A DNA stretch of 64,000 nt, taken from contig NZ_FOFB01000018.1 of NCBI RefSeq assembly GCF_900110645.1, positions 62,001 through 126,000 of the forward strand. The letters run 5' to 3'. The DNA is from Neolewinella agarilytica (GTDB lineage Bacteria > Bacteroidota > Bacteroidia > Chitinophagales > Saprospiraceae). Shown here piece by piece: positions 4,251 to 60,568 of this stretch. Positions within the stretch are counted from its first letter, which is position 1. Every line of letters starts with the position of its first letter. The translations under genes and the position numbers were made by a program. The notes beneath the pieces were generated by a model, which did not search any database, was not told where the DNA came from, and saw nothing but the letters and a program-made list of their open reading frames with translations.

Positions 4251-4270
4251 GGGCGCGGACGCAGGTGCAA
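4251..4270 (-). repeat. 20-bp dispersed CACCTGCG element
   Basis: Minus-strand reading TTGCACCTGCGTCCGCGCCC, a full match to the window consensus. It lies about 75 bp upstream of the lipoprotein gene that starts at 4175, in the same orientation as that gene. Confidence 0.85.
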
Positions 4271-4394
4271 AGTAAAAGGTGGGGAGCAATGCTTACCGCC
4301 GCCCCTGACTTTTGTCCCGCACTAAGTCCATCTGAACGCACCACCGCCGTAGCCTGCACGATGACTTAGCCGATTCCTCCTTCTTGAAAATGAG

Positions 4395-4426
4395 CAAGGG
4401 CAGCCGTTTTCACGACTGCCCTTTTG
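4395..4426 (-). terminator. Rho-independent terminator after tRNA-Arg
   Basis: An inverted repeat, AAGGGCAG at one side and CTGCCCTT at the other with a 12-nt loop, lies just 3' of the tRNA on the minus strand. The surrounding A/T-rich tracts fit intrinsic termination. It could work in both directions. Confidence 0.6.
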
Positions 4427-4430
4427 AAAG

Positions 4431-4504
4431 TACCCCGTATAGGACTCGAACCTATGACCTGAGAATTAGAAGTTCCCTGCTCTATCCAGCTGAGCTAACG
4501 GAGC
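4431..4504 (-). tRNA. tRNA-Arg(TCT)
   Basis: The minus strand folds as a complete 74-nt cloverleaf: acceptor GCTCCGT/ACGGGGT (with a G-U closing pair), D-arm GCTC...GAGC, anticodon arm GGGAA-CTTCTAA-TTCTC with anticodon TCT (reads AGA), T-arm ATAGG-TTCGAGT-CCTAT, discriminator A. CCA is not encoded. The 5' end is only 10 nt downstream of the stop of the endonuclease-like ORF on the same strand. Confidence 0.93.
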
Positions 4505-4514
4505 GGATACTATC

Positions 4515-4934
4515 TTAAAGATCGAAAGGATCTCTAAAGTTGCGCGCAAAGTTAACGCCTTTAGTTTGATTGTTCATAGGAGGATCAATTCTTAGAATAA
4601 CAGAGGTGTTAAATTTATGATGATCAACGTAATAAACCTCCTTGGTATCAGGGCAGTATATCGCAATAGCGTCAACCATATATTTATCAATTGGAACTAC
4701 GGAAATACCTTTTGAGGTGGAATAAGTTGACTTAAACCCAACCTCTATCCTTCCTTTGGTCACGGATCTATACTTTACTGAAAGACGGGATAACCGACCT
4801 TCAGGATAGACGGCGATGAGGTCAAAAGGCAGATGTTCGGAAATGGGTAAGCAAACATGAATGCCTTTTGACATCAGGTCTGCGATAACAAATCCGACTC
4901 CAACATCTCCTTTGTTTTTAGTATGATGATACAT
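4515..4934 (-). CDS. PD-(D/E)XK group I intron-type homing endonuclease-like protein
   Basis: 139 aa from the first ATG (a TTG five codons earlier is possible). The N-terminal half matches the group I intron-associated PD-(D/E)XK family (I-Ssp6803I-like, PDDEXK_5): TKNKGDVGVGFVIADL, CLPISEHLPFDLIAV with a candidate catalytic Asp38, then RLSVKYRS with Lys54. The position usually held by Glu/Gln in the (E/Q)xK motif is Ser52 here, so activity is uncertain. Members cut DNA site-specifically; some act without an intron. Base composition is clearly more AT-rich than the neighbours, suggesting transfer. It ends 10 nt before tRNA-Arg, a target class used by relatives, but no intron interrupts the tRNA. 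Confidence 0.72.
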   Translation of the reverse strand: MYHHTKNKGDVGVGFVIADLMSKGIHVCLPISEHLPFDLIAVYPEGRLSRLSVKYRSVTKGRIEVGFKSTYSTSKGISVVPIDKYMVDAIAIYCPDTKEVYYVDHHKFNTSVILRIDPPMNNQTKGVNFARNFRDPFDL

Positions 4935-4962
4935 TATGCAAAATAACAAAAAGTTTCAAATA

Positions 4963-7814: not shown

Positions 7815-7834
7815 TTGCACCTGCGGCTGCGCCA
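7815..7834 (+). repeat. 20-bp dispersed CACCTGCG element
   Basis: TTGCACCTGCGGCTGCGCCA, 18-19 of 20 consensus positions. It lies 66 bp upstream of the decarboxylase start at 7900, in the same direction as that gene. Confidence 0.8.
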
Positions 7835-11741: not shown

Positions 11742-11791
11742 TGGGTAGAAATTAAGCGTGTGGAGCGCTGACATTTAGGAAGGCTCAGCGA

Positions 11792-11807
11792 GGGCCCGCA
11801 GGTGCAA
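11792..11807 (-). repeat. Shortened CACCTGCG element (16 bp)
   Basis: The minus strand reads TTGCACCTGCGGGCCC, lacking four bases of the 20-bp consensus. It lies 51 bp upstream of the NlpC/P60 lipoprotein start, in the same orientation as that gene. Confidence 0.65.
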
Positions 11808-16000: not shown

Positions 16001-16145
16001 GGCAGTTCGCTCGCTTTACCACAGCCAGCTCTCCTCCGGGCCGCAACAGCTTTCACTGAATACGGGAGAGGTGCCGGCGGGGCTTTATTTCCTCCGGGTT
16101 TCGGGGGGAATGGGAACGGCGGTTCGCAGTCTTGTAGTTCGGTAG
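13059..16145 (+). CDS. Secreted alpha-amylase family (GH13) enzyme with T9SS sorting domain
   Basis: 1028 aa. Signal peptide 1-20; an N-terminal beta domain (about 21-150) of starch-binding or SusE-like type; an Ig-like linker region; a CBM48/E-set domain with FVIGNFNDW (about 350-420); a GH13 barrel (about 455-880) with VILDVVYNH, FRFDLSKGF (nucleophile Asp628), MEHLAE (acid/base Glu675) and ESHDEER (His738, Asp739); a C-terminal all-beta domain; and a type A T9SS sorting domain (about 945-1028: LEVSPNPTGGRLRLDF, GLYFLRV). It cleaves alpha-glucans such as starch or glycogen and is exported through the type IX system, probably to the cell surface. Confidence 0.92.
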   Translation: MQKTFLFLLSLCVSLGLQAQLIITDPAAPTDDQAVTITFDATRGTGGLANCNCDVYLHTGVITNNSSSPSDWKYVQTEWGVANADWKLTPVAGEPNKFTYTYGPSIREYFSVPAGEEIQKIAFVFRNADGTMEGKATGGADIFVDVSAGGGALGLTVVGNPGQDNWPLGKPLSVLAGATAEASLEIYDNETLVTSATDVELASELVFTTPGEHIIRFVARRGTEEVSESFTLDAVLVVEFTEPSRDFSSAAAGESVSLTGTSYISSDLLLSDGTNTFFSGNATDFSESVSLPNAGVTTYTISSSYLGETAVDRVIFVTGEPETAEPPAGQRSGAVDGDNGEVTLQLRAPGKSDVFVIGNFNDWTPTAESRMKRSADGSTFWITLSGLEQGEDLLYQYLIDGDLRQPDPYSTLVLDPNNDPFISEATFAGIPDYPSLATTGIVSWHRRAVAPYNWQTEDAYDRPDPERMVVYELLIRDFLEDHSFKSLTDTLDYLERLGVNAIELMPLNEFEGNLSWGYNPSFHMALDKYYGSPEDLKAFVDACHARGMAVILDVVYNHAFGQSPLARMWWDEAAFRPTAENPYLNITARHPFNVGYDFNHESDLTKEYVKTGLEYWIEEFRIDGFRFDLSKGFTQLFSGNNVGFWNQYDASRVAILKDYADHIWSIDDETYMIMEHLAEVSEENELAEYGNGMYFWSGFQPHDAYLEASMGYGGNIREVLASNRGFDSRRLVAYMESHDEERMQFKNDQFGNSANGYNVKNRPTGLSRIQLASTFFYTIPGPKMLWQFGELGYDFSINYCPGGGIDPNCRVDNKPIRWDYRNDPDRQKVYNWIADLNFLRNNYSFLHGTISRQQLSGDAKIVHLEGSDGTAAIVGNFDVNPVRTASVFPFAGTWYDYATGESITVNDPDMVVDLEAGEHHVYLDRPIARGGGDLSTSTNSRAIARLQLEVSPNPTGGRLRLDFLLKEAGPVSIDLVDATGRAVRSLYHSQLSSGPQQLSLNTGEVPAGLYFLRVSGGMGTAVRSLVVR

Positions 16146-16149
16146 GTTG

Positions 16150-16221
16150 GTCTTTTGGTTCTTTGGGCTACCGCACATGGGAGGCATGGGAGGCATGGGA
16201 GGCATGGGAGGCATGGGAGGC
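16150..16221. repeat. Intergenic mosaic with five 9-bp CATGGGAGG repeats
   Basis: TCTTTTGGTTCTTTGGGCTACCGCA is followed by five exact copies of CATGGGAGG at 16176-16220. The same order of parts (GGTTCTTTGG run, then GGGGCTGCCGCATATTGGAGG) occurs at 42215-42310. The rest of this gap to 16382 shows no gene. Confidence 0.85.
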
Positions 16222-16382
16222 AAAAAATAAGGCTGGAGCTCCTCACGTAAGTATCCGTATAAAAAACGACTAGGAGGAAATAAGTAAGTCAGCTTTGCGA
16301 CTCACCAACAGACCAACACGCAGTCCCCTCCTAAACGCGGCAGCCCGAAAGACTAACGAGCTAACGAAGCAAGAGACTAACC

Positions 16383-16966: not shown

Positions 16967-16986
16967 GGGCGCGGTCGCAGGTGCAA
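16967..16986 (-). repeat. 20-bp dispersed CACCTGCG element
   Basis: The minus strand reads TTGCACCTGCGACCGCGCCC, a full consensus match. It lies about 147 bp upstream of the lipocalin-like lipoprotein start at 16820, in the same orientation, and just past the 3' end of the AsmA-like gene. Confidence 0.85.
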
Positions 16987-20678: not shown

Positions 20679-20698
20679 CGGCGCTGCCGCAGGTGCAA
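20679..20698 (-). repeat. 20-bp dispersed CACCTGCG element
   Basis: The minus strand reads TTGCACCTGCGGCAGCGCCG. It lies 116 bp upstream of the AsmA-like start in that gene's orientation. The TonB receptor gene diverges on the other side. Confidence 0.82.
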
Positions 20699-23207: not shown

Positions 23208-23488
23208 GGAAAAAAATTAAAAACGGTCTGTCCGTCCAGGATTAGAGACAAATAAATTCGCTATTTCAGATAAGGCCCATTAGCTGTGCTGTAACACCTA
23301 TATGCTAACGTCAAAGCCCTGGACAGAAAAAGGGCATTACTCGAGGGGAACGCTAAGCGTAAAAATTATAGAACTACTGGAAGATTCGAGACTTCAGGGT
23401 GTTCATACGCTGCTTTTCAACTCACATTGCACCTGCGGCCGCGCCCAAATCCAAAATCCAAAATCAAGAATCGAGAATCAAGAATCCC
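23208..23488. other. Intergenic region with a CACCTGCG element and AAATCC/GAATC repeats
   Basis: About 280 bp without a supported gene. 23208-23426 shows nothing recognisable. A full CACCTGCG element follows, then a short degenerate run of AAATCCAAAATCC and AAGAATCGAGAATC units to about 23490, at the 3' edge of the small membrane protein gene. Confidence 0.55.
23427..23446 (+). repeat. 20-bp dispersed CACCTGCG element
   Basis: TTGCACCTGCGGCCGCGCCC, a copy with the most common core (contains the GCGGCCGC palindrome). It lies intergenic, 42 bp beyond the 3' end of the minus-strand membrane protein gene. Confidence 0.9.
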
Positions 23489-25402: not shown

Positions 25403-28400
25403 ATGTTTGACGCTATTATCAGGTTCTCGCTTGAGAACAAACTGATCGTGCTGATCGGCGTTTTTGCCATCAGCATCATTGGTGTTTTCTCCGCTTCCCA
25501 GATTCCGCTGGACGCCGTTCCCGACATTACCAACAATCAGGTACAGATCGTGAGCATAGCCCCCACTTTCGCCCCGGAGGAAGTAGAGCAACTCATTACC
25601 TACCCGCTTGAATCCTCGATGACCAACATCCCCGATGTAGTGGAAGTCCGGTCAATCTCCCGCTACGGACTATCGGTGATCACCATCGTCTTTGAGGAGA
25701 AGGTGGAGGTACTGCGGGCCAGGCAATTCGTTCAGGAGCAACTGAACGTCGCTGCCGGAGAACTACCCTCCGGCGTAGAGACGGAGCTGATGCCCATTAC
25801 TACCGGACTGGGCGAAATCTATCAGTATGTCCTCACCGTTGCACCTGCGTACGCGCACAAATATGACGCTACGGAGCTGCGTACCATTCAGGACTGGATC
25901 GTTAAACGCCAACTCAATGGTACCGAAGGCATCATTGAAGTAAGCAGCTTTGGCGGCTACCTGAAACAGTATGAAGTAGCTCTTGACCCGGTAGCACTCC
26001 GCAATTATGGCGTAAGTGTTGAAGAGGTGATTACTGCCCTGGAAGACAACAACGAAAACAGCGGGGGCAGTTACCTGGAGCAAGGCAGCTACTCCTATTA
26101 CATCCGTACCGAAGGTCGGGTGGGTGCAGAGGAAGACATTATGGCCATCCCGCTCGGAAATGAAGCCGGGCCACCGCTACGCATCCGCGATGTAGCCAGG
26201 GTAACCATCGGCAGCGCCAAGCGCTACGGTGCCATGACGATGGACGGCAAAGGCGAGGTCGTTGGCGGCATCACCCTGATGCTGAAGGGTGCCAACTCTT
26301 CTGAAGCCCTGCGCAACGTCCGGGAGCGGATGGCAACAGTAGAAGCCTCCTTACCCGAAGGCGTATCCATCTACCCATACCTTGACCGGGCCAGCCTGAT
26401 CGGCAAGACGATAGACACCGTCCGGACCAACCTGATCGAAGGCGGGCTCATCGTCATCTTCGTCCTCCTCCTACTGCTGGGCAACCTGCGGGCGGGCCTC
26501 GTGGTGGCCTCCGTAATCCCGCTATCCATGCTCTTTGCCCTGATCATGATGCGCTACTTCGGCATATCAGCTAACCTGATGTCGTTGGGTGCCATTGACT
26601 TCGGCATCGTTATTGACGGCGCCGTGATCATTGTAGAAGGGCTGCTACACGCTCTGGCGATCGGCTACGTCGGCCAGCATTTGTCCCAGGCAGAAATGGA
26701 CGCAGCGGTTCGTAAGTCTACGGGCGAAATCTACCGCTCGGCCGCCTTTGGGGTATTGATCATTCTACTCGTTTTCCTGCCCATTCTTACGCTGGAGGGC
26801 ACGGAGGGCAAGACCTTCCGGCCAATGGCGCAGGTAGTCAGTTTTGCCATTCTGGGCAGCCTGATCCTGAGTGTCACCTACGTGCCGGTGATGGCTTCGC
26901 TGTTCCTGTCCAAAAATATCAAAGCCGAGACCGGCTTTGCCGCCCGCATCATGGCCTGGCTGGAACAGCACTACCGGCCGGTAGTGCGGGCCGCCGTTCG
27001 CCATGCAGCCCCTACCCTGCTCATCGCGCTGGTGGTACTGGCAGCGGCACTCTTCGTCTTCAGCCGGATGGGCGGTGAGTTTATCCCTACCCTGGAGGAA
27101 GGCGACATTGCCATGCAACAGGCCATCAAACCGGGAAGTTCCTTGCAGGAGAGCATCCATACTTCGACGATGGCGGAGAAAATCCTGCTGGACAATTTCC
27201 CGGAGGTGAAGCACGTCGTCTCCAAGATCGGAACGGCGGAAGTACCCACCGATCCGATGGCCATCGAGGATGCGGACATCATGATCATCCTGAAGGACAA
27301 GGAAGAGTGGACCTCCGCCGACAACCGGGAAGACCTGATGGCGATGATGAAAGACAAACTGGCCCCCATCAACTGGGCCTCATTCGACTTTACCCAGCCC
27401 ATCCAACTTCGCTTCAATGAGCTGATGACGGGAGCCAAGTCAGACATCGCCGTGAAAATTTTCGGTGAGAATGCAGAGACCCTGAAAGAAAGCGGCGACC
27501 GTGCCGCAGCCATCATTGAAGGCATTGAAGGGGCTGGCGACGTGCGGGTAGACCAAACGGACGGGCTCCAGCAGCTATCCGTCAATTACGACCGGAACCG
27601 TATGGCCCAATACGGAGTCACCGTTCGTGCGGCCAACCAACTCATTCGCGCGGCCTACGCCGGGGAGATTGTAGGTAGCGTTTACGAGGAGGAACGAAAA
27701 TTTGACCTTGTCGTTCGGCTCAACGATCAGTCGCGGCAAACGCTTGACCTTGATCAACTGAGCATCACAGCACGAAACGGCCGGTTAATTCCCCTGAGCG
27801 AAGTTGCCTCGGTGGAAGAACGGGAGAGCCCGATGCTGATCTCGCGGGAGCAGGCACGGCGCTTCATCAACATCGGCGTCAACGTCCGTAACCGGGACGT
27901 AGCGACGCTGGTAGCCGATATTCAAACGGCGCTGGAGGCAAAGCTGGACTTGCCACCGGGTTACGAGGTTCAGTACGGTGGGCAGTTCGAGAGCTTGCAG
28001 TCGGCCCGCGTACGCCTGCTGGTGGCAGTGCCATTGGCGCTGGGGCTCATTCTGTTACTGCTGTACCTGGCCTTCGGCACCTTCCGGGATGCCCTCGTGA
28101 TTTTCGTTGCGGTACCACTTTCAGCGATCGGGGGAATTTTAGCGCTGGAACTACGGGGAATGCCCTTCAGTATTTCCTCGGGGATTGGCTTCATCGCCTT
28201 GTTCGGCATTTCAGTGCTCAACGGTATTGTACTGATTAGCGCGATCAAGCATTTGAAACCCGCTGACTATCCTGATTTTTCCGCGCTCATTACCGATGCT
28301 GCGGCCACCCGTTTACGACCAGTATTGATGACAGCGGCCGTAGCGGCTTTCGGTTTTCTGCCGATGGCGCTGTCTAACGGCAGTGGAGCAGAGGTGCAAC

Positions 28401-29701
28401 GCCCCCTGGCGACGGTGGTGATTGGCGGTTTATTGTCATCGACCTTGCTCACGCTGGTGGTTTTGCCGGCACTGTACTACCTGGTGAACCGGAAGCGTTT
28501 CGGGGGCGCTGCCGCAGGTGCAATGGGAAGTGTAGTAATAGCAATGCTGCTCTTCAGCCCGGGCCTCTCCGCCCAAACGATCAATAGTTTTCCGGAACTC
28601 TTGGACTATGCCCTGGAGCACAATCCTTCCCTGGCCAACCAACAGCTGAGGGTCCGCGCCGAAGCACTTAACCGGCGGTCGATCGGGGCATGGTCTCCGC
28701 TGGAGATCGATTACCAGGGCGGACAGATCAACGCCGTTGACTTCGACCATCAACTGAGTGTTCATCAAAATCTGAACCATCTCTTTTCACGAGGGCCTCG
28801 CGGGGAGGTCATCGACGCCAGAGTGGCTGAGCTGGAGGCCGAAAACCTCGTTCTGGTCCGGGAGCTGGCGTTCAGGCTACGGAAGTCTTATCTGGAATGG
28901 GAGCACCAAAACGCTCTGTTACAGCTGCAGGATTCCCTGGCCCGGCACTATGTACAGCTGACGGACAAGATCGAGCTCCGCCGCCGGGCGGGTACGCTGG
29001 GCGTGATCGATGAAGAACTATTCCGGCAGGAGCTACGCAACCTCCGTCAGCAAGTAGTCGCAGGCGAGCAAAGCGTGGCAGCGGCGGAGGCAGAGCTGCG
29101 CCTCCTTGCTCTCTTACCGGATTCTTTGCACCTGCGGCCGCGCCCCCCGAATCTGTTAGTCGTTCCGGAAGAGGATACTGCCGAAAACCTCTACCTCACC
29201 GCTCTTGATCGTCAACGCGACCGGCTGGACAAAGAAACCGCGCTCACCAACCGCCTGGAACGCCAACCGCAACTCTCCGCCGGTTACTTCCTGCAGACCA
29301 TCGAAAAGGACTTCGCCTTCCAGGGCCTGGCCATCGGGGTGGGTTTACCGCTCGACCGGCGCAACCAAAAAGTCCGCTCAGAGCAGGCAACACTACAACG
29401 GGAAACGCTGAACAACCAGAGCCGGATGATCACCGACCGCTACACCACCCGCCTGGGCAGCCTGCGCGCGCAAATCGCGCAATTGCAGCCCGCCATTGCT
29501 GCCTACAAGCTGGCCAATGACGCCAGCAATGCCCGAATCAGCCAGATCGCCCGCCTGCAATTCGAGCAGGGCGCAATTGACTTCCTGACCTTCAGCCAGC
29601 TAAGTCAACGGGGCTTCGACGGCCGTCGCCAATACTTACAACAACTCCATCAACTTAACCAGCTGGTCATTGAACTGAGCTACCTCCAAAACCAGTTTTG
29701 A
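25403..29701 (+). CDS. Heavy-metal efflux RND pump fused to a TolC-like outer-membrane factor
   Basis: 1432 aa. Residues about 1-1035 are a CzcA/CusA RND pump: VPDITNNQVQI near the first helix, 12 predicted helices, porter domain with GLGEIYQY, and DFGIVIDGAVIIVEG in helix 4, a motif closer to CzcA (Zn/Co/Cd) than to E. coli CusA. Residues about 1045-1432 form an outer-membrane efflux (TolC/CusC) domain with its own signal-like segment (VVIAMLLFSPGLSAQ). This pump-TolC fusion is known in Bacteroidota. CACCTGCG elements lie at the pump, junction and TolC parts (25839, 28504, 29126), all in frame. It overlaps no gene; the adaptor follows after 2 bp. Confidence 0.92.
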   Translation: MFDAIIRFSLENKLIVLIGVFAISIIGVFSASQIPLDAVPDITNNQVQIVSIAPTFAPEEVEQLITYPLESSMTNIPDVVEVRSISRYGLSVITIVFEEKVEVLRARQFVQEQLNVAAGELPSGVETELMPITTGLGEIYQYVLTVAPAYAHKYDATELRTIQDWIVKRQLNGTEGIIEVSSFGGYLKQYEVALDPVALRNYGVSVEEVITALEDNNENSGGSYLEQGSYSYYIRTEGRVGAEEDIMAIPLGNEAGPPLRIRDVARVTIGSAKRYGAMTMDGKGEVVGGITLMLKGANSSEALRNVRERMATVEASLPEGVSIYPYLDRASLIGKTIDTVRTNLIEGGLIVIFVLLLLLGNLRAGLVVASVIPLSMLFALIMMRYFGISANLMSLGAIDFGIVIDGAVIIVEGLLHALAIGYVGQHLSQAEMDAAVRKSTGEIYRSAAFGVLIILLVFLPILTLEGTEGKTFRPMAQVVSFAILGSLILSVTYVPVMASLFLSKNIKAETGFAARIMAWLEQHYRPVVRAAVRHAAPTLLIALVVLAAALFVFSRMGGEFIPTLEEGDIAMQQAIKPGSSLQESIHTSTMAEKILLDNFPEVKHVVSKIGTAEVPTDPMAIEDADIMIILKDKEEWTSADNREDLMAMMKDKLAPINWASFDFTQPIQLRFNELMTGAKSDIAVKIFGENAETLKESGDRAAAIIEGIEGAGDVRVDQTDGLQQLSVNYDRNRMAQYGVTVRAANQLIRAAYAGEIVGSVYEEERKFDLVVRLNDQSRQTLDLDQLSITARNGRLIPLSEVASVEERESPMLISREQARRFINIGVNVRNRDVATLVADIQTALEAKLDLPPGYEVQYGGQFESLQSARVRLLVAVPLALGLILLLLYLAFGTFRDALVIFVAVPLSAIGGILALELRGMPFSISSGIGFIALFGISVLNGIVLISAIKHLKPADYPDFSALITDAAATRLRPVLMTAAVAAFGFLPMALSNGSGAEVQRPLATVVIGGLLSSTLLTLVVLPALYYLVNRKRFGGAAAGAMGSVVIAMLLFSPGLSAQTINSFPELLDYALEHNPSLANQQLRVRAEALNRRSIGAWSPLEIDYQGGQINAVDFDHQLSVHQNLNHLFSRGPRGEVIDARVAELEAENLVLVRELAFRLRKSYLEWEHQNALLQLQDSLARHYVQLTDKIELRRRAGTLGVIDEELFRQELRNLRQQVVAGEQSVAAAEAELRLLALLPDSLHLRPRPPNLLVVPEEDTAENLYLTALDRQRDRLDKETALTNRLERQPQLSAGYFLQTIEKDFAFQGLAIGVGLPLDRRNQKVRSEQATLQRETLNNQSRMITDRYTTRLGSLRAQIAQLQPAIAAYKLANDASNARISQIARLQFEQGAIDFLTFSQLSQRGFDGRRQYLQQLHQLNQLVIELSYLQNQF
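25839..25858 (+). repeat. CACCTGCG-like element inside the efflux pump gene
   Basis: TTGCACCTGCGTACGCGCAC agrees with the consensus at all but one or two positions and encodes VAPAYAH in the porter domain. That region (xxHKYDA) is conserved in the family, so part of the match may be chance. Confidence 0.5.
28504..28523 (-). repeat. CACCTGCG element at the pump-TolC fusion joint
   Basis: The minus strand reads TTGCACCTGCGGCAGCGCCC; the gene reads it as GAAAGA, exactly between the last pump helix and the TolC signal-like segment. Confidence 0.85.
29126..29145 (+). repeat. CACCTGCG element inside the TolC-like domain
   Basis: TTGCACCTGCGGCCGCGCCC, a full match read in frame as LHLRPRP between two helices of the TolC-like part. 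The reading frame and orientation differ from the copy 600 bp upstream. Confidence 0.85.
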
Positions 29702-32116: not shown

Positions 32117-32136
32117 GGGCGCAGACGCAGGTGCAG
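32117..32136 (-). repeat. 20-bp dispersed CACCTGCG element upstream of panC
   Basis: The minus strand reads CTGCACCTGCGTCTGCGCCC, 17 bp before the panC start codon and in panC orientation. It pairs with the divergent copy at 32194. Confidence 0.85.
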
Positions 32137-32193: not shown

Positions 32194-32213
32194 CTGCACC
32201 TGCGTGCGCGCCC
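32194..32213 (+). repeat. 20-bp dispersed CACCTGCG element upstream of the synthase-like gene
   Basis: CTGCACCTGCGTGCGCGCCC, pointing toward the gene at 32367 and divergent from the copy at 32117. The two enclose 57 bp of the divergent intergenic region. Confidence 0.85.
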
Positions 32214-33304: not shown

Positions 33305-33335
33305 TTTGGCAGTGTTGATTTGCCCCAATGCAACA

Positions 33336-33504
33336 AGTACAGTGTAATATAAGTATTCGCTGATTTCTGCTTGGTCTTTTGCCTGCTGGCGTCATGAAAA
33401 AACAGGTCCGTCCCGCAATACTGCGGGATGCATCTATTTTTTCATCTAGCCAGCAAACAAAATCCCGGCGCAAAAACCTAACTCAACTTATGTTACACTG
33501 TACT
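33336..33504. mobile_element. 169-bp MITE-like imperfect palindrome
   Basis: The ends are inverted copies: AGTACAGTGTAATATAAG on the left and CTTATGTTACACTGTACT on the right. Inside, TTTTGCCTGCTGG...ATGAAAAAACAG pairs with CTATTTTTTCAT...CCAGCAAACAAAA, and the exact centre is the hairpin CCCGCAATACTGCGGG. The symmetry point coincides with the middle of the element. No transposase is present. A solo left-half copy lies at 56033-56093. It ends 60 bp before the DUF4270 start. Confidence 0.8.
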
Positions 33505-33564
33505 AGTACTACAACACTATCCTACTACCTTACTACTATACTAACTCTTGCCCCCTCCCATCGA

Positions 33565-38642: not shown

Positions 38643-38732
38643 CTGTAGCGAAGATAGGTTTAAGCCGGACTTCGTGAGCTTTTGTTTGTCGGATTTTGGT
38701 CAGCTTTTCGGGTGCAGGCATTTCAGCAGGCT

Positions 38733-38753
38733 CGGCGCGGTCCGCAGGTGCAG
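38733..38753 (-). repeat. CACCTGCG element, 21-bp variant
   Basis: The minus strand reads CTGCACCTGCGGACCGCGCCG, with one extra base in the centre. It lies 91 bp upstream of rfbD in that gene's orientation. Confidence 0.75.
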
Positions 38754-38805
38754 GGGATTGGTTGAGGGGCAGGGTGTAAAACAATGCAGGTCATATCGAA
38801 CTAAA

Positions 38806-41800
38806 ATGTCTTTACCTTCGCCACTGATGACTGAAGACCAACGTAACGATGCCTTCCGTAAATACTTCTACCGTAAGCTGAATCGCCTTCGGGATAACGA
38901 AGATTACACCCCGCAGGAACGCTGCCTGGCACTCCGGCGCTTCCTGCTGGAGCTCTTTGAGCGAGCGACGGAGAAAGACCAATTGCATTTCAGTACTAAC
39001 TTCTCCCGGATTAGCTACGCGGCGCACAAGTTCGGCATTCCGGCTACGCATATTCATCAGGAGCGGCGCTTCCGCAGCCGCCGCCTCTCCCGGCTCTCCG
39101 CGGAAGACATTGACAAGCAGCTCACCACCGGCTATCGCCTGGCTACGGAACTCACCCGCGCCCTCTTCGGCGGCGCAGTGCCCGAAGACTGGGTGAGCTA
39201 CCTGACCCTTCCCTACCCTTTCCCCTACGTTAAACCGGAAGTAAAAGACCGTTTTGCCCGCCTGCGTGTCCTCGCCGTGGAAATTGAGCCGGAAGAAGAA
39301 CTGCTCTACGTCCGGGAAGAAGCCCGCCCCGAAAGCGTATACAGTATCCCCTTTGGTGCGGAGGAGGTGAATAACCCGTTCGTCGCTCAGGCACTCGCCA
39401 TTGTTCGAAAAATCAGCGGACTCCCCGTTCTGCTCAACTTAATTAATGCCGAGTTGCGGAGCGACGGGCATCTGCACCCCGCCCAGATCGTCGTACAGCC
39501 GGATTACCTGATCGACGTAACCGCCGTAGCGGAAAGCTTTGAATCGGACAAGAGCTATCAGCCCTGGAGCAATATGGCCCGTAAGCTGGTGCCCATGCGA
39601 ACGGCTCTGCCCCTCGTACGGGGTAATCTCGTCAATTACTTTCTTGACCGGCTGGTGGAAAAGCCCGACGTTACCTTCAAAGAACTACTAGCTAACATTT
39701 TCCAGACCCAGCCACTAGCTCTTTGCCTCTTCGAAGACCGGGAAATTACGGACCTGATTGCCCAGTTGAAGCACCACTTCGTCAGCCTGCAAAAGTTCGT
39801 TAATCAGGAATTGGCGCGCATTGACGTCAACCGGGAGTCCATTCTTCTGGAGCCCTCTTTCCTGAGCCCAACCTACGGTGTGCAGGGCCGACTGGACTTG
39901 CTGCAAGCAGGCGCCACCAAAGCAGACCCAACGACTATTGTCGAGCTAAAAACCAGTAAATACTGGAAGCCGAACAAGCACGGCATCAACCAGACGAACT
40001 ACATACAAACTTTGCTCTACGATCTGATGATCAACGAGGCACTGGGTGAAGGAGCCAACGTACGGTCCTACATTCTGTACAGCAACGACTTTGAAAACGG
40101 GCTCAAATATGCTCCGCCGGAATATCAGCAAAAGCTGGAAGCCATTGCCGCAAGAAACCAGCTACTGGGCGTTGAACTCCTGATCGGGAAACTCGGCGTG
40201 GAGGCCGGGAAAGACCTTGCCAAAGAGACCGATGCCCTGATCAGCCGGCTGAACCCGGCCAAAATCCCCAGCCTGGGAACTTTTTCCCGACGGGACCACG
40301 AAAAAGTACTCGACGTCTACGGAAAACTCAATGAGCTGGAGCGGCGGTACTTTGGAGCTTTCCTCGGCTTCACGGCCCGGGAACAGCAACTCTCCAAAAC
40401 CGGTGAACAGCGGCTGGAGAGTATCAATGGGCTGGCCAGCCTCTGGCTGGAGGAACGGGAAGACAAGATCGAACGCTTTGAGCTGCTCGACGGGCTAACC
40501 TACGCTGCCTACGACCCCGAGACGGCCATCCTCACCCTGGCCCGTCCGGCGGAGGACGACCGGTTGGTCAAGTTTCGGCAGGGAGACATCATTGCTCTTT
40601 ACGCAACTGCCGAAGAGGCCGCCCGGCCGCAGGACGCCATCCGCTCTCAGATTCTGAAATCGACCATCATCGAGATCAGCCCAAGCCAGGTACGGCTGCG
40701 GCTACGCAGCCAGCAACTCAATGATGCAGCCTTCCGCAGGAGCGGCTTCTGGAGCATTGAAAAAGACGTACTGGACAGTAGCTTCCGCCACCACTACCAG
40801 GGCCTGCTTACCTGGGCATCGGCTCCCGTAGAGCTACGCCGCCAATGGCTGGGCCAACGCCCTCCGGGGCAGGCTCCGCCGCTCACATCAAGCATTGCCG
40901 ACGGTCTCACCGAAGAGCAAAACCGCATCCTGCAGACGATCATCACTGCGCCAGATTACTTCCTCCTCTGGGGCCCGCCCGGCACGGGAAAGACGAGCCA
41001 GATGCTGCACCACCTCGTAAGGCACTTGCTGGACAACAGCCAGGAAAGTCTCCTGCTCGTCGCCTACACTAACCGGGCGGTAGACGAAATCTGCGAAAGC
41101 ATCGAACGGATCGTTACGCCGGAGGGGGAGTCTTTTACTAACTACCTGCGCATTGGTAGTCGCTACGGGGTATCCCCTCGCTTTGAGGAAAGGCTGCTGC
41201 AGGTGCAGAGCCAAAAGATCAATAAACGGGCGGAATTGCGGGCATTGATCCAGCGTACCCGCATCATCGTCAGTACCGTGGCGAGTGTGGGGGGTAAGAG
41301 TGAGCTGTTTCAGCTCAAGCAGTTTGACCGGATCATTGTGGATGAGGCCAGCCAGATCCTCGAACCGTTGCTGGCGGGCCTGCTACCGCGTGCCCCGAGG
41401 GCCTTACTCATCGGTGATCACCGGCAGTTACCTGCCGTAGTGCAGCAACGCCCTGCGGAGACGAAAGTATCCGACGAAGCGCTGATCGACATCGGGCTGA
41501 AGGACCTGGCGACCAGCCTCTTCGAACGCCTGTTCCTCACGGCCCAGCGCAAAGGCTGGACCTGGGCCTACGACCAACTCCGCCACCAGGGGCGGATGCA
41601 CGAAGACATTATGGCCTTTCCGGCCAGGCACTTCTACGACGGGCAACTGGAAATTTTACCGGAGAACATTCCTCACCACCAAACTCAGCTCCAGAAACTC
41701 CCCCCCGCACCTGCGGCCGCGCCCCTGACCACTCGTCTCGGCAGCCATCGCCTCCTCTTCCTCGAAACCCCACCCGACCACCGCAACGCCGACCCCAAGG

Positions 41801-42213
41801 TGAACGGACACGAAGCGGAGCTGATGATTCAACTCATCGCTGGCTTCACCGAACTATATGCAGATACCGAGCGCCCCATCGCCCCGGGAGACATCGGCAT
41901 CATTACCCCCTACCGGGCGCAGATTGCGCACATCCGCCGGCACCTTCACGATGCAGGCCTCGCCGCCGAAAATTATATGGTGGACACCGTGGAGCGCTAC
42001 CAGGGAGGTGCCAAACGCATCGTACTCATATCTCTTTGCACCAACGAAGACGCGCAGATCCAGATGCTCTCTCAGGTCAGTGAAGAAGGGGTGGACCGCA
42101 AGCTGAACGTAGCCATGACCCGGGCACGGGAGCACCTCGTGATCGTCGGCTGCCCGGAAATTCTGCGGCAGAGTATGGTGTATGGGGAATTGCTGGATTT
42201 TATTGGGGAATAG
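38806..42213 (+). CDS. Dna2-like PD-(D/E)XK nuclease and SF1 helicase fusion
   Basis: 1135 aa from the ATG at 38806 (the frame upstream is not coding-like). The N-terminal third is unrecognised. About 355-400 is a RecB/Dna2-type nuclease: GVQGRLDLL and IVELKTSK (GxxD...ExK), then QTLLYDLM (QxxxY-like). About 705-1130 is a superfamily 1 helicase: WGPPGTGKTS (Walker A, about 722), VDEASQ (Walker B, about 845), GDHRQLP, and VAMTRAREHLVIVG (motif VI). The nuclease-then-helicase order is that of Dna2, but the four Fe-S cysteines of Dna2 are not seen. It probably acts in DNA repair or end processing. A CACCTGCG element is read in frame as PAPAAAP near residue 969. Confidence 0.85.
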   Translation: MSLPSPLMTEDQRNDAFRKYFYRKLNRLRDNEDYTPQERCLALRRFLLELFERATEKDQLHFSTNFSRISYAAHKFGIPATHIHQERRFRSRRLSRLSAEDIDKQLTTGYRLATELTRALFGGAVPEDWVSYLTLPYPFPYVKPEVKDRFARLRVLAVEIEPEEELLYVREEARPESVYSIPFGAEEVNNPFVAQALAIVRKISGLPVLLNLINAELRSDGHLHPAQIVVQPDYLIDVTAVAESFESDKSYQPWSNMARKLVPMRTALPLVRGNLVNYFLDRLVEKPDVTFKELLANIFQTQPLALCLFEDREITDLIAQLKHHFVSLQKFVNQELARIDVNRESILLEPSFLSPTYGVQGRLDLLQAGATKADPTTIVELKTSKYWKPNKHGINQTNYIQTLLYDLMINEALGEGANVRSYILYSNDFENGLKYAPPEYQQKLEAIAARNQLLGVELLIGKLGVEAGKDLAKETDALISRLNPAKIPSLGTFSRRDHEKVLDVYGKLNELERRYFGAFLGFTAREQQLSKTGEQRLESINGLASLWLEEREDKIERFELLDGLTYAAYDPETAILTLARPAEDDRLVKFRQGDIIALYATAEEAARPQDAIRSQILKSTIIEISPSQVRLRLRSQQLNDAAFRRSGFWSIEKDVLDSSFRHHYQGLLTWASAPVELRRQWLGQRPPGQAPPLTSSIADGLTEEQNRILQTIITAPDYFLLWGPPGTGKTSQMLHHLVRHLLDNSQESLLLVAYTNRAVDEICESIERIVTPEGESFTNYLRIGSRYGVSPRFEERLLQVQSQKINKRAELRALIQRTRIIVSTVASVGGKSELFQLKQFDRIIVDEASQILEPLLAGLLPRAPRALLIGDHRQLPAVVQQRPAETKVSDEALIDIGLKDLATSLFERLFLTAQRKGWTWAYDQLRHQGRMHEDIMAFPARHFYDGQLEILPENIPHHQTQLQKLPPAPAAAPLTTRLGSHRLLFLETPPDHRNADPKVNGHEAELMIQLIAGFTELYADTERPIAPGDIGIITPYRAQIAHIRRHLHDAGLAAENYMVDTVERYQGGAKRIVLISLCTNEDAQIQMLSQVSEEGVDRKLNVAMTRAREHLVIVGCPEILRQSMVYGELLDFIGE
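41705..41724 (+). repeat. CACCTGCG element inside the nuclease-helicase gene
   Basis: CCGCACCTGCGGCCGCGCCC; all but the first two bases match the consensus. It is read as PAPAAAP in a linker between helicase motifs. Confidence 0.85.
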
Positions 42214-43526: not shown

Positions 43527-44266
43527 AGTTTTTCGGCTTCCAGAGTTTCCACGACTCCTTTTTTCCAGGAATAGGGAATGTTTTCGACGACAAATGCGCT
43601 GGCAAGGGTGGCGTACGGCCAACCTCGTTTTTCCAGCCAGGGCAAGGTAAGACTTTCAACCGCTACCGGGCGGGGTTGCCAGTTTTGGCGGCGACCTTCG
43701 ACGATGAGCATTTCCCGTGTTTCCGCGAGGTAGGTAAAGGTGAACGGCAGCGGACCGGCGAAGCGGCGGGCTTCCTTCCAGTTCGCGAAGGGAGAGCCGG
43801 GCGGCAAAGCAGGATCTTCGGCGTAGCGAACGCTGACCTCAAAGCTCTCGCTGGCGCTGGACACGTGATAATGGTCGGCGGTTTTCTCTTGTTGTACGGA
43901 AATTCTCGAGTAATTGTAGTGCGTCATCAGGTTACCGAGCAATGCCATCTGGCGGCTATCCGTCTGGGATTCCAGAATATACAGGCCTCGCAGCCGTTTA
44001 CCCGCCTGGTTCCCGTAGCGGGTAAAGATGCGGTAACCGACCAGGAAAAAATCATTCCCGAGAAAGGCGGGCATTATGCTCGGCCGCAGGCTTTTGGTCT
44101 GCACCATAGCGACGGCAACGAAGGCGTGCTCGTTGTTGAAAGTATCGAGTTCCAGCGGCGGCGGCAGGAGAGTTTGCAACTCCCCGGGCGGCAGGGCGAA
44201 GGTGAGCACCAACGATTGGTTGAAGTGGGCAGAGACGGGGAAAGGGTGGCGCTTACGCAGGTGCAT
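43523..44266 (-). CDS. DUF2071 (YqjF-like acetoacetate decarboxylase-fold) protein
   Basis: 247 aa. Matches DUF2071: HFNQSLVLTFALPPGELQTLLPPPLELDTFNNEHAFVAVAMVQ at the N-terminus, FLVGYRIFTRYGNQAGKRLRGLYILES in the middle, and the C-terminal LPWLEKRGWPYATLASAFVVENIPYSW. The fold resembles acetoacetate decarboxylase but the reaction is unknown. Its ATG lies inside a degenerate CACCTGCG element (ATGCACCTGCGTAAGCGCC), so the first residues MHLRKR come from it. It is followed with overlap by the methyltransferase gene. Confidence 0.85.
   Translation of the reverse strand: MHLRKRHPFPVSAHFNQSLVLTFALPPGELQTLLPPPLELDTFNNEHAFVAVAMVQTKSLRPSIMPAFLGNDFFLVGYRIFTRYGNQAGKRLRGLYILESQTDSRQMALLGNLMTHYNYSRISVQQEKTADHYHVSSASESFEVSVRYAEDPALPPGSPFANWKEARRFAGPLPFTFTYLAETREMLIVEGRRQNWQPRPVAVESLTLPWLEKRGWPYATLASAFVVENIPYSWKKGVVETLEAEKL
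44248..44265 (-). repeat. Degenerate CACCTGCG element at the DUF2071 start codon
   Basis: The minus strand reads TGCACCTGCGTAAGCGCC; the TG belongs to the start codon. It matches about 16 of 18 consensus positions and is in the orientation of the gene. Confidence 0.5.
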
Positions 44267-49128: not shown

Positions 49129-49148
49129 GGGCACTTCAGCAGGTGCAG
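49129..49148 (-). repeat. Degenerate CACCTGCG element
   Basis: The minus strand reads CTGCACCTGCTGAAGTGCCC: both ends and the 20-bp spacing are kept, but the central GCGNNCGC is lost. It lies 15 bp before the start of the SRPBCC-like gene, in that gene's orientation. Confidence 0.5.
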
Positions 49149-50363: not shown

Positions 50364-51518
50364 TTAAAGTCTGGTCCCTCCTCCCAGCGGCGAATCCGGC
50401 ACCATAGCGGGCCGGCGGCCCAGCTCTTCGGGCAGGGAGCAGGTTTTCATGCGGGGCAGCACGTAGCGGGCGAAGAGTTCGCATTCTTCCAGGTGGGGGT
50501 AGCCGGAAAGGATGAAAGACCGAATGCCCATGGCGTGGTAGCGCATCAGCTTGTCGTAGACCTGATCGGGGGTACCGACGATGGCGGCCCCGCAGCCGCT
50601 GCGGGCGCGGCCGATGCCGGTCCAGAGGTGATCTTCGACGAAGCCGTCCTTGTCCGATTGTTCCCGGAGGGCAGCCTGCTTGCTTACGCCATAAGATTTG
50701 GCGTCAAGGGCCCGGTTCTTCAGCTCTTCGCCGGATTCATCATCGATGAGGTGCATCAGATCCCGGCTGGCCTGGAGAGCCTCAGCTTCCGTCTCCCGGA
50801 CGATGACGTGGACCCGGAGACCGAAGTCGAGCGTTCGTCCAAACTTTGCACCTGCGGCCGCGCCCACCTTCTGCATGTGCGCCTGAATCTTGTCTTCTGT
50901 TTCCGGCCACATCAGGTAGACATCGCAATGCTCGGCGCACAGCTCTACCCCATCCGGGCTGTACCCACCGAAATAAAGCAGCGGGCCACCATTTTGCTGG
51001 TAGGGCCTGACCGGGGCCGTGGGCAGGTCAAGATCGTAAAACTCTCCCCTAAAAGAAAGATGATCTTTCGTCCAGCATTGCTTCAGTATTTCAATCACCT
51101 CCCGGCTTTTGCGGTAGCGGACGGCGCTTTCCACTTTGGTTCCCGGCAGGTCACTACTGATGATGTTGACGGTCAGTTTGCCCAGCAGCATATGATCGAG
51201 CGTAGCCAGCGCGCGGGCCAGCATGGGGGGATGCACCTCTCCGCAACGGATGGCCGTAAGCAGGTTCATCTGCCGCAGTTGTGGAGCCAGGGCAGCGGCG
51301 AAGGTCAGGGTATCCTGCCCGACCTGATAACTGCTGGGCAAGAGCATATTCCGGTACCCCAGCTCATCCGCCGTACGGGCGATCTGGCTGGCGTTGCGAA
51401 AACTGCTTTTGTAGAAAGGATCCCGTTTGCCCAGAAAGCGGTCATCACCGTTACAGATGGGGGCAAACCAGGAAACTTCGGCGGAGGGGAGATGGGCAGA
51501 TCTGACGGGATTGGACAA
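50364..51518 (-). CDS. LLM-class flavin-dependent oxidoreductase, SsuD-like
   Basis: 384 aa from TTG; no ATG precedes the conserved [15 protein letters not shown], so a non-ATG start is needed. It resembles FMNH2-dependent alkanesulfonate monooxygenase: [76 protein letters not shown] and [16 protein letters not shown]. It frees sulfite from organosulfonates using reduced flavin. No ssuABC or ssuE gene is near, so the substrate is uncertain. A CACCTGCG element is read in frame as VGAAAGAK near residue 220. Confidence 0.88.
50846..50865 (+). repeat. CACCTGCG element inside the LLM oxidoreductase gene
   Basis: TTGCACCTGCGGCCGCGCCC, a full match on the strand opposite to the gene, read as GAAAGA. 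The same peptide is produced by the copy at the pump-TolC joint. Confidence 0.88.
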
Positions 51519-55559: not shown

Positions 55560-55581
55560 GGGCGACGGGGCGCAGGTGCAA
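55560..55581 (-). repeat. CACCTGCG element, long variant
   Basis: The minus strand reads TTGCACCTGCGCCCCGTCGC and CC, with two extra bases in the centre. It lies about 130 bp upstream of the beta-helix gene, in its orientation. Confidence 0.55.
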
Positions 55582-59003: not shown

Positions 59004-59045
59004 TGGCTTGTTTTCTTGGGCGGGGCGAAGGTACAACATGGGGGC

Positions 59046-59142
59046 GGGTTGCGGGTGCCAGTTGCCGGGTGCGAGGTGCCGGGTCCTCATGTCCGCACCT
59101 GGCAACCCGGCACCTGGCAACTGGCAACTGGCACCCCGCAAC
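59046..59142. repeat. Long imperfect inverted repeat of GTGCCGGGTT units
   Basis: The left arm (GGTTGCGGGTGCCAGTTGCC, GAGGTGCCGGGT) and the right arm (ACCTGGCAACCCGGCACCTGG, CAACTGGCACCCCGCAACT) are near-complements about a CCTCATGTCC centre, forming a hairpin of about 40-bp arms between the CBS-domain gene and the permease gene. The vocabulary matches the 23173 heptamer array. Confidence 0.8.
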
Positions 59143-59172
59143 TACCCCTTGCAACTTAACCCACACTTAACA

Positions 59173-59200
59173 TTGACCTCCAAACATCGACCTATCTTGC
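59173..59200 (+). promoter_or_regulatory. Candidate promoter of the permease gene
   Basis: TTG (59173-59175) and TATCTTGC (59193-59200), a near match to TAnnTTTG, are 17 bp apart; the start codon is 33 bp further. Confidence 0.4.
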
Positions 59201-59232
59201 GCGATCTTTTTTAGGTTTTCTAATTATCCTGC

Positions 59233-60402
59233 ATGGACCCCACGCTGATTATCATGTGGCTTGGATTCATTCTCGCCGGCTACGCCGTCGTTGGTAATGA
59301 TTCTATTCAGACGCTTGGCACCTTTCTTTCCTCTAATGAAGAGCGTCCCTGGTACGTGCTTTGGGCCTTTGCGGGTTCCATTCTGGCCTTCACACTCATC
59401 TATGGCTGGTTTCATTACTCCGGAGACGTGAGCTACGGCCGCCTGGAAAAGTATGACTTCGTAGAAAATATGAGCTGGCCCTACCTGCTGCCGCCACTGG
59501 TGCTGATGCTGCTGACCCGAACGGGAATTCCGGTGAGTACCTCTTTTCTGGTACTGACTTTCTTTAAACCGAAGGGCTTGTATGCGATGACGACGAAGTC
59601 CATCCTGGGCTACGCCCTGGCTTTTTGCGTGGCCATCATTGTCTGGCAGCTGATCACTAAAGCTCTAGATAAGAAGTTCATCTCCAGTGATATCACCCGC
59701 AGCGAACGCCGCAACTGGACCATCCTCCAGTGGCTCTCTACCGGTTTCCTCTGGGGGCAATGGCTCATTCAGGACTTTGCCAACATCTACGTATACCTGC
59801 CAAGATCCCTGACGGCCGTTGAGATTGGCCTGTCTCTGACCATTTTGCTGACCATGCTCGGCATTATCTTTTACAGTAAGGGAGGCAATATTCAAAAAAT
59901 CGTCAAGGCAAAAACAAATACAGCCGACATTCGCTCCGCTACTATCATTGACTTCATCTACGGTCTGGTCCTGCTCTTTTTCAAAGAGTTCAGCAATGTC
60001 CCGATGTCTACCACCTGGGTATTCCTGGGCCTGCTGGCGGGGCGGGAGATTGCCATTCGCTACAAAATGGAATTAGGCAAAGAACCCTCGGACATCAAAG
60101 CTGCTCCTACGGCCCACTACCTCGGTATTGCCCTCAACATCCTGGTCCTGGGTATGATCGGCTACGTCGTTTACCTGCGGGATGCCGTTCAGGACTGGAT
60201 CATCTTCGTCATGGCGGCCGTCATGATCGCCCGCGCCGTAGTCATCTATTACGAAACAATTCCCGGCCGACTCAACCTCAAAGCCGCCTTCAAAGACATC
60301 GGCAAAGACCTCGGCAAGGTCACCTTCGGGCTGCTGGTTAGTATCGCCCTGGTGTTCATTATGCGGTTCCTCCTGACGGGATCCTTTGCGGGGCCGATGT
60401 AG
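59233..60402 (+). CDS. PiT-like (phosphate transporter family) membrane protein
   Basis: 389 aa, about 9-10 hydrophobic helices. Two halves carry related motifs: GNDSIQTLGTFLSS and GIPVSTSFLVLTFFKPKG in the first; FSNVPMSTTWVFLGLLAGREI in the second. The GND...G and PxST patterns are those of PiT inorganic-phosphate/sulfate permeases, though the second ND is missing. Annotated relatives in Bacteroidota are called hypothetical or inorganic phosphate transporters. It may take up phosphate or another anion at the inner membrane. It converges with the RND gene. Confidence 0.8.
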   Translation: MDPTLIIMWLGFILAGYAVVGNDSIQTLGTFLSSNEERPWYVLWAFAGSILAFTLIYGWFHYSGDVSYGRLEKYDFVENMSWPYLLPPLVLMLLTRTGIPVSTSFLVLTFFKPKGLYAMTTKSILGYALAFCVAIIVWQLITKALDKKFISSDITRSERRNWTILQWLSTGFLWGQWLIQDFANIYVYLPRSLTAVEIGLSLTILLTMLGIIFYSKGGNIQKIVKAKTNTADIRSATIIDFIYGLVLLFFKEFSNVPMSTTWVFLGLLAGREIAIRYKMELGKEPSDIKAAPTAHYLGIALNILVLGMIGYVVYLRDAVQDWIIFVMAAVMIARAVVIYYETIPGRLNLKAAFKDIGKDLGKVTFGLLVSIALVFIMRFLLTGSFAGPM

Positions 60403-60410
60403 GGTTGTAC

Positions 60411-60428
60411 CGCCGACTTCAGTCGGCG
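60411..60428. repeat. Small palindrome after the permease gene
   Basis: CCGCCGAC-TTCA-GTCGGCGG, a perfect 8-bp stem hairpin of the same style as those at 458-515 and 6775, followed by GCGTAGG. It could mark the transcript end of the permease gene, but lacks a T-tract. Confidence 0.5.
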
Positions 60429-60548
60429 GAAAGCGTAGGCAGTCGGACCTAAGCTGGCCACGGCTCCGAGCGTCCGGACGGAAAATTTGCCGCTGCGCTC
60501 CAAATTTATCCATCCGACCGCCTCCGCCTTGCTCTTACGCCCCTCCCC

Positions 60549-60568
60549 TTGCACCTGCGTTCGCGCCT
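60549..60568 (+). repeat. 20-bp dispersed CACCTGCG element
   Basis: TTGCACCTGCGTTCGCGCCT, in the convergent gap between the permease and the RND gene, 10 bp beyond the latter's stop. Confidence 0.85.

What the first reader, a model, noticed from the sequence alone, without database searches (positions are those of the whole stretch)
4251..60568. About 18 copies of a 20-bp element, YTGCACCTGCGNNCGCGCCC
Copies at 4251, 7815, 11792, 16967, 20679, 23427, 25839, 28504, 29126, 32117, 32194, 38733, 41705, 44248, 49129, 50846, 55560 and 60549, on both strands, average one per 3.5 kb. The ends are conserved while the central two bases vary and single-base length changes occur, as expected of a mobile or actively spread element, or a site kept by selection (methylation, binding protein). 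The density is far above chance for about 17 fixed bases. I know of no described element of this sequence.
Basis: seen in the sequence. Interest (0 to 1): 0.85.

Follow-up and report, generated by a model that had tools for sequence, protein, structure and literature searches.

The report
Possible DNA-uptake watermark in Neolewinella bacteria
The repeated 18-letter motif looks like a genome-wide watermark that marine bacteria of one genus build by point mutation, in spellings that differ between species, and it most likely marks DNA as 'own' for uptake during natural transformation.

Summary
The window's genome (6.22 Mb; Neolewinella/Lewinella group, Bacteroidota) holds 442 exact TGCACCTGCGNNCGCGCC; the reversed control has 0. 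With mismatches and small length changes allowed, 464 kb hold 109.

It is not a mobile element. At orthologous places the motif comes and goes by substitution: of 111 aligned stretches without it, none lacks 14 or more of its 17 bases and 82 lack none. In ComEC it sits at one codon column in 10 of 11 genomes of one group, where third-position identity is the highest of 732 windows.

Sixteen of the 21 genus genomes carry 323-1,320 copies of a degenerate form. There are dialects: one genome has 438 TGCTACTTTGNNAGCC, absent from the other 20. 147 family members outside the genus have 0-3 copies. Copies are evenly spaced, strand-neutral and enriched between genes.

These are marks of uptake sequences (DUS/USS), described as known only in Neisseriaceae and Pasteurellaceae (PMC12616744). 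ComEC and DprA are present; a type IV pilus ATPase was not recognised. Uptake itself is untested.

The parts
4252..4269 (-). uptake-sequence-like motif, exact, intergenic
7816..7833 (+). motif, 1 mismatch, intergenic
11789..11806 (-). motif with degenerate tail, intergenic
16968..16985 (-). motif, exact, intergenic; GCACCTGCG with a degenerate tail stands at the same place in near relative G009
20680..20697 (-). motif, 1 mismatch, intergenic; kept in G009
23428..23445 (+). motif, exact, intergenic; in G009 split by an insert with the palindrome CCCCGATAGCTATCGGGG
25840..25857 (+). motif, 1 mismatch, inside the RND-type ORF 25403-29701; orthologs in G004, G005, G019 have other bases at the same length
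28505..28522 (-). motif, 1 mismatch, between the ACR_tran and OEP stretches of the same ORF; a motif stands at this place in the orthologs shown and in the more distant copies shown (in G008 with 3 extra bases)
29127..29144 (+). motif, exact, just after the matched OEP stretch of the same ORF; motif in G005 and G018, variant in G004 (GTACCTGCGGCCCCGCC), no gaps
32118..32135 (-). motif, 1 mismatch; left member of an inverted pair; kept in G009
32195..32212 (+). motif, exact; right member of the inverted pair; kept in G009
38734..38752 (-). motif with one extra base in the centre
41706..41723 (+). motif, 1 mismatch, inside ORF 38629-42213
44248..44265 (-). motif, 1 mismatch, at a predicted gene start
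49130..49147 (-). weak motif, 3 mismatches
50847..50864 (+). motif, exact, inside predicted ORF 50364-51518 on the opposite strand
55561..55580 (-). motif of the second subtype, longer centre
60550..60567 (+). motif, exact, intergenic

Best explanation
The element is the uptake sequence of this genus: a binding site that lets competent cells take up DNA of their own kind in preference to other DNA. The site is asymmetric and two-part, C-N-T-TGCACCTGCG-NN-CGCGCC-C, with a pyrimidine-rich stretch of about 20 bases upstream. Inferred mechanism: (1) a surface DNA receptor, not yet known and probably not a type IV pilin, binds the motif in either orientation; (2) DNA enters the periplasm and one strand passes through ComEC; (3) DprA and RecA recombine it into the chromosome; (4) because fragments with the motif enter more often, alleles with the motif keep replacing alleles without it (molecular drive), so motifs arise by point mutation, become evenly spread, tolerate amino-acid changes, and change spelling when the receptor's specificity changes. 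Shown here: abundance, spread, substitution origin, conserved positions, dialects, genus limit, ComEC and DprA genes. Inferred: receptor, uptake bias, drive.
For: 442 exact copies, reversed control 0; degenerate form 323-1,320 copies in 16 of 21 genus genomes, control 0-4. Dialects: TGCTACTTTGNNAGCC 438 in G010 and 0 in the other 20; ACCTGCGCNCCGNCGCC 336 in G001; GCTCCCGCG-, GCTCCTGCG- and GCACCTGCGGCAGCGCC-types in samples of G003, G017, G013. G010's motif keeps the layout: C at -3 (94% of 18), TGC at 0-2, C and T at 5-6, G at 9, a variable pair at 10-11, G and C at 13-14. Not an insertion: of 334 alignments from 76 elements, 111 targets lack the motif and 0 of these lack 14 or more of the 17 bases. 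Core identity 0.857 against 0.633 in flanks. ComEC column 1892 (antisense): motif in 10 of 11 genomes of one group, third-position identity rank 1 of 732 windows over all 11; column 428 (sense): in 7 of 9 genomes of the other clade plus a related spelling in G001, rank 13 of 740. Spacing more even than random (CV 0.77 against 0.98, 0.3% of 2,000 simulations as low); strands mixed (31/30, 14/17, 8/9); intergenic 3.1-fold enriched. 11 of 11 close pairs inverted. ComEC in 21 of 21, DprA in 20 of 21 genomes (the miss is 55% complete). Riemerella columbina, same phylum, prefers its own DNA (PMC7965970, one section read).
Against: No uptake or transformation was tested, and my paper searches listed no report of transformation in this genus. 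ComEC and DprA are widespread (controls), so they discriminate little. A type IV pilus ATPase was not recognised (PF00437 reaches its cut-off nominally in 11 of 21 genomes, but with at most about 25 bits over about 84 of 370 positions; the ORF checked is ClpB), so the known machine and receptor type seem to be missing. The fixed part (16 bases) is longer than the 9-12 of DUS/USS. G006 and G015 have low counts for the spellings tried (41 and 125; 138 and 107). Copies around Y1_Tnp genes are not depleted, although uptake sequences elsewhere are rare in newly acquired DNA. In motif-lacking targets small gaps in the core (48 of 111) were about as frequent as in the controls (39, 43), not fewer; several of these targets are near-misses of the motif or motifs split by an insert. 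Few gene families (ComEC, RND) supply many of the alignments, and some target loci had been fetched by the motif.
Confidence: 0.7

Rival explanations
1. Binding site of a chromosome-organising, recombination or repair protein (nucleoid protein, Chi-like or KOPS-like site) that is kept by selection on the site itself and drifts between species.
For: Density (about one per 4.2 kb) is like Chi in E. coli (recalled); conserved orthologous positions; no test here separates binding inside the cell from binding at the surface.
Against: No strand polarity in three contig parts of 280, 120 and 64 kb; 16 fixed bases is long for Chi or KOPS (recalled); 50 of 109 copies lie in genes, in both orientations, and one examined copy changed amino acids; spellings this different between species of one genus suit a recognition or barrier role better than a housekeeping one (inference).
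Confidence: 0.17
2. Non-autonomous mobile element of REP/MITE type, moved by a Y1 (RAYT) transposase.
For: Hundreds of copies, inverted pairs, Y1_Tnp genes in 20 of 21 genomes.
Against: No whole-element presence/absence in 111 motif-lacking aligned stretches, whereas a true insert in the window, 33327-33506, shows a clean empty site in G009; no enrichment near Y1_Tnp genes; G018 has 805 copies and no Y1_Tnp match. By inspection a single unit has no long hairpin; no fold was run.
Confidence: 0.03
3. Transcription or RNA signal (terminator, 5' leader element) or a coding signal such as a signal-peptide stretch.
For: 8 of 50 intragenic copies lie within 75 nt of a predicted gene start, 7 of these in sense (expected share 6%); inverted pairs could act as terminators, a role also proposed for uptake sequences (PMC2346458, passage).
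Against: Copies lie in both orientations, inside genes, upstream, downstream and between converging genes; 42 of 50 intragenic copies are not near a start. A secondary use is possible.
Confidence: 0.05
4. Restriction-modification or epigenetic methylation site.
For: Sequence differences between species.
Against: A methylation site gives no known pressure to accumulate 17-base copies in coding sequence (inference); not tested, no methylation data or methyltransferase search.
Confidence: 0.05

Closest known systems
DNA uptake sequence (DUS) of Neisseriaceae with its dialects (PMC3630211, passages read)
   Same: Large copy numbers; dialects that follow clades; a short inner part shared by the dialects; limited to one lineage
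   Different: [quoted passage not shown] here 16 fixed bases in two parts around a variable pair, another phylum, and no type IV pilus ATPase recognised
Uptake signal sequence (USS) of Pasteurellaceae (PMC7811141, one section and passages read)
   Same: Evolves by point mutation and not by insertion; even distribution; rarer in coding sequence
   Different: USS core is 9 bases (its extended AT-rich flank is recalled); here the soft flank is upstream and pyrimidine-rich; density about 0.24 per kb against about 1 per kb
Self-preference in DNA uptake by Riemerella columbina (PMC7965970, one section and passages read)
   Same: Same phylum; own DNA competes for uptake, other DNA much less
   Different: No specific motif was established there; A-rich k-mers were listed and left open
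REP/RAYT and MITE repeats (recalled)
   Same: Many dispersed short copies, single and in inverted pairs
   Different: Those are inserted as units; these are not

Membership tests
DNA uptake sequence (DUS/USS) | strong genome-wide over-representation on both strands | tested here: met
   442 against 0; 16 of 21 genomes 323-1,320; control 0-4; strands 31/30, 14/17, 8/9
DNA uptake sequence (DUS/USS) | arises in place by point mutation, not insertion | tested here: met
   0 of 111 motif-lacking aligned stretches lack 14 or more of 17 bases
DNA uptake sequence (DUS/USS) | dialects that follow phylogeny | tested here: met
   ComEC tree: G001 with G006, G003 with G017; judged by eye, no formal test
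DNA uptake sequence (DUS/USS) | rather even spacing and under-representation in coding sequence | tested here: met
   CV 0.77 against 0.98; intergenic enrichment 3.06 on my own gene predictions
DNA uptake sequence (DUS/USS) | host has ComEC and DprA | tested here: met
   21 of 21; 20 of 21
DNA uptake sequence (DUS/USS) | type IV pilus machine or minor pilin receptor | tested here: inconclusive
   no PF00437 match beyond about 84 of 370 positions in 21 genomes (11 nominally over the cut-off); one search shows that one of these is ClpB. Pilins and secretins were not searched. Whether a pilus defines the kind is open
DNA uptake sequence (DUS/USS) | the motif raises DNA binding or uptake by competent cells | not testable with these tools
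   needs an uptake assay
DNA uptake sequence (DUS/USS) | under-represented in newly acquired DNA | tested here: inconclusive
   11 motifs in 64.8 kb around Y1_Tnp genes, equal to background; small sample
REP/RAYT repeat | whole-unit insertion; association with a Y1 transposase | tested here: not met
Chi/KOPS-type polar site | strand bias along the replichore | tested here: not met
   for three contig parts of 280, 120 and 64 kb

The most novel reading that the evidence does not exclude
A third, independent origin of self-recognising DNA uptake sequences, the first in Bacteroidota, with a two-part motif of 16 fixed bases read by a receptor that is not a type IV pilin, and with dialects that have diverged within one genus as far as TGCACCTGCGNNCGCGCC and TGCTACTTTGNNAGCC. 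The dialects would act as genetic barriers between sister species.
Probability: 0.55. Interest if true: 0.92.

Novelty: new variant of a known kind. Interest (0 to 1): 0.85.

Why it matters
[quoted passage not shown] A third case in a far phylum, in bacteria without a recognised type IV pilus ATPase, would show that such systems arise repeatedly and may use another receptor. The dialects in 21 related genomes give a ready data set for finding the receptor by co-variation and for asking whether uptake dialects help to keep species apart. It would also give a practical handle for transforming these marine bacteria.

Tried and rejected
REP/RAYT or MITE: rejected by ortholog alignments and by the lack of a link to Y1_Tnp genes. 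Promoter or 5'-leader element: considered after seeing copies upstream of genes; rejected because orientation and position are mixed. Signal-peptide coding stretch: 7 of 50 intragenic copies lie in sense within 75 nt of a start; cannot explain the rest. Chi/KOPS: no strand polarity in the parts tested. Dialects in other genera of the family: k-mer lists of G033, G023 and G021 gave no motif that I could recognise as comparable; only about 100, 100 and 43 kb were looked at. Viral contigs: 96 stretches with a match among 2.9 million contigs; the 80 listed have one or two matches each; not followed. Paper searches for a described uptake sequence or dispersed repeat in this group listed none; only listings and the named passages were seen, and the library lacks most subscription papers.

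Faults of method: one search read only the window, because the loci sit together in shared files; one search used a fuzzy-match mode that skips poorer hits, so only its exact counts are used; one search aligned unoriented loci and was repeated; one search found too little synteny for a window-wide comparison. The ComEC frames were cut short in several genomes by a fault in my frame search (G003 453 of 716 aa); repeat frames, columns, tree and ranking with full frames, and the report uses these (old column 1877 = new 1892; old 410 = new 428; the old rank was 1 of 719). One search also broke off with an error, and its ten genomes had been picked for having the motif; one search uses all 11. The search for ComEC columns used the first nine bases of the motif. 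The positions listed as fixed are fixed in part because copies were picked with at most one mismatch. In one search pairs over 97% identical were dropped and repeats of one element and target genome were merged before counting, and the loci L029-L056 used as targets had been fetched by the motif, which favours motif-bearing targets. The 'G021' sample also contains 7,302 bases of G022. The gene calls are my own rough predictions.
Full report
What was claimed and what is there. All 18 are present, two of them weak, and there are at least two more. Chance expectation for up to three mismatches is 0.82. The window is part of a 6.22-Mb genome in 74 contigs (G000, C21:62001-126000), in which the exact 18-base pattern occurs 442 times, 208 on one strand and 234 on the other; the same pattern read backwards occurs 0 times. 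In 464 kb of this genome I count 109 copies with up to two mismatches and a length change of -1 to +2 in the centre, one per 4.2 kb; for the whole genome this extrapolates to about 1,460. TGCACCTGCG is the commonest 10-mer there (81 in 464 kb).

Whose genome. G000 itself is unnamed.

Anatomy. In 68 copies with at most one mismatch (the 16 fixed positions are partly fixed by that choice), TGCACCTGCG is followed by two variable bases (the second mostly C), CGCGCC and usually C. A C three bases upstream, not part of the choice, is present in 93%. The 20 bases before are pyrimidine-rich with weak preferences (TGCTC at about -20 and AACCTT at about -8, by eye). A second subtype, ACCTGCGCNCCGNCGCC, occurs 73 times in G000. 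I see no evident hairpin in a single unit; no fold was run.

Not a mobile element. Three copies lie inside one RND-family ORF (ACR_tran plus OEP). At the first, G000 has the motif while G004, G005 and G019 have other bases over the same length, so it was made by substitutions that change amino acids. At the second, a motif stands at the same place in the orthologs shown and in four copies of about 47% identity, one of them (G008) with three extra bases. I then took 351 elements from the DNA in hand and aligned them to other genomes of the genus: 334 alignments from 76 distinct elements span the motif. The target also has a motif in 223. Of the 111 without, 82 lack none of the 17 bases, 28 lack 1-5, one lacks 6-13 and none lacks 14 or more. 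Gaps of any kind fall in the core in 78 of 334, against 111 and 132 in equal windows on either side; among motif-lacking targets the core is not favoured (48 of 111 against 39 and 43). Core identity is 0.857 and flank identity 0.633; 0.755 and 0.636 in motif-lacking targets. In intergenic DNA shared with the near relative G009 a motif stands at four of five places aligned, once with a degenerate tail, while the flanks differ; at the fifth (23428) it is split by an insert. By contrast, a real insert in the window (about 33327-33506) has a clean empty site in G009.

Conserved places in the competence gene itself. ComEC (PF03772) is found in 21 of 21 genus genomes. Within ComEC the motif lies antisense at codon-alignment column 1892 in 10 genomes, all in one group of 11 in the ComEC tree (support 84/95, drawn open); only G005 of that group lacks it. 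Over all 11, with or without motif, this window has the highest third-position identity of 732 windows (0.794; median 0.373). In the other clade, of 9 (support 100/100), column 428 in sense bears the motif in seven genomes; G001 has TACCTGCGCCCGTCGCC there, close to its own dialect, and G008 GCACCGGCGGCCGCGCC. This second window ranks 13 of 740 (0.713; median 0.454), so it is conserved but not outstanding. G010, whose dialect is different, has TGCTACTTTGCCAGCC near column 1886; the alignment has gaps around it, so I claim the same region and not the same column.

Dialects. The degenerate pattern GCWCCYGCGNNCSCGCC gives 323-1,320 copies in 16 of 21 genomes; G015 has 138, G013 59, G006 41, G001 5, G010 4; the reversed control gives 0-4. 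The low ones have other spellings: G001 336 copies of ACCTGCGCNCCGNCGCC, G006 125 and G015 107 of it; G013 favours GCACCTGCGGCAGCGCC (11 in 100 kb); G010 has 438 TGCTACTTTGNNAGCC, 219 on each strand, while the other 20 genomes have none. G010's motif keeps the layout of the main one, including the C at -3 (94% of 18) and the variable pair. G003 and G017, sisters in the ComEC tree, share GCTCC[CT]GCG and CCCGCC; G001 and G006, also sisters, share the second subtype. G006 and G015 have no strong spelling among those tried. Outside the genus, 139 of 147 family genomes searched (drawn from a larger family) have none and eight have one to three copies.

Distribution. Gaps between copies are more even than random (CV 0.774 against 0.98; 0.3% of 2,000 simulations as low; with near pairs merged 0.683 against 0.947, none as low). 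Strands are mixed within contigs (31/30, 14/17, 8/9). Of 109 copies 59 are intergenic in my rough gene calls, 3.1 times the expectation. Eleven pairs lie within 200 bp, all inverted (4.9 pairs of any orientation expected, simulation maximum 14).

Interpretation. Abundance, spelling by species, origin by point mutation, even spacing, strand neutrality, avoidance of coding sequence and inverted pairs are what is written of uptake sequences: 'they are not inserted elements', relatively evenly distributed, under-represented in coding sequence (PMC7811141, one section and passages); dialects with a shared core (PMC3630211, passages); no general orientation bias, inverted forms and a bias to gene ends (PMC2346458, abstract and passages). 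The steps after binding (ComEC, DprA, RecA) are established for other bacteria; ComEC and DprA genes are here, RecA was not searched. The uptake bias is inferred.

What does not fit or is open. A type IV pilus ATPase was not recognised: PF00437 passes its cut-off nominally in 11 of 21 genomes but only over about 84 of 370 positions and at about 25 bits; the ORF checked is ClpB and three others begin alike. A second group of still shorter matches was not identified, and pilins and secretins were not searched. The known reader of DUS is a type IV minor pilin (ComP), and one is predicted for USS (PMC12616744, passages), so a receptor of another kind would be needed. Riemerella columbina shows that self-preference exists in this phylum, but the authors listed only A-rich k-mers and left their role open. 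The motif is not scarcer around Y1_Tnp genes. A chromosomal binding protein remains the main rival.

Novelty. PMC12616744 (October 2025) calls Neisseriaceae and Pasteurellaceae the only families known to have this (passage). My six paper searches listed no such motif for Bacteroidota; the library is incomplete. I therefore file it as a new variant of a known kind, on condition of an uptake test.

Noticed in passing
window about 33327-33506: An insert of about 180 bp: G009 C218 matches the window up to 33326 with base 3340 and goes on at 33507 with base 3341, an empty site; the sequence itself has at least six further copies in G009 at 83-90% identity. A MITE-like mobile element, unrelated to the motif.
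   Followed up: partly
window about 16130-16230: A short repeat with many partial copies in G009.
   Followed up: no
L341, at the place orthologous to window 23428: In G009 the motif is split by an insert with the palindrome CCCCGATAGCTATCGGGG; CGATAGCTAT is also over-represented in G019, so it may be a mobile palindrome of its own.
   Followed up: no
G000 C24:83171-83271 (L023): An inverted pair of motifs encloses a palindromic sequence (CCGCCGGCTTCAGCCGGCGG ... GCCGACTGAAGTCGGC) that looks like a separate REP-type repeat.
   Followed up: no
G003 C1:75377-75680 (L250): Clustered copies of a palindromic repeat, GACGACTAAAGTCGTCGCTACACGT and variants, unrelated to the motif.
   Followed up: no
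window 25403-29701: One ORF of 1,432 aa joins a full ACR_tran (RND pump) part and an OEP part; a second copy of about 47% identity is in the same genome.
   Followed up: partly
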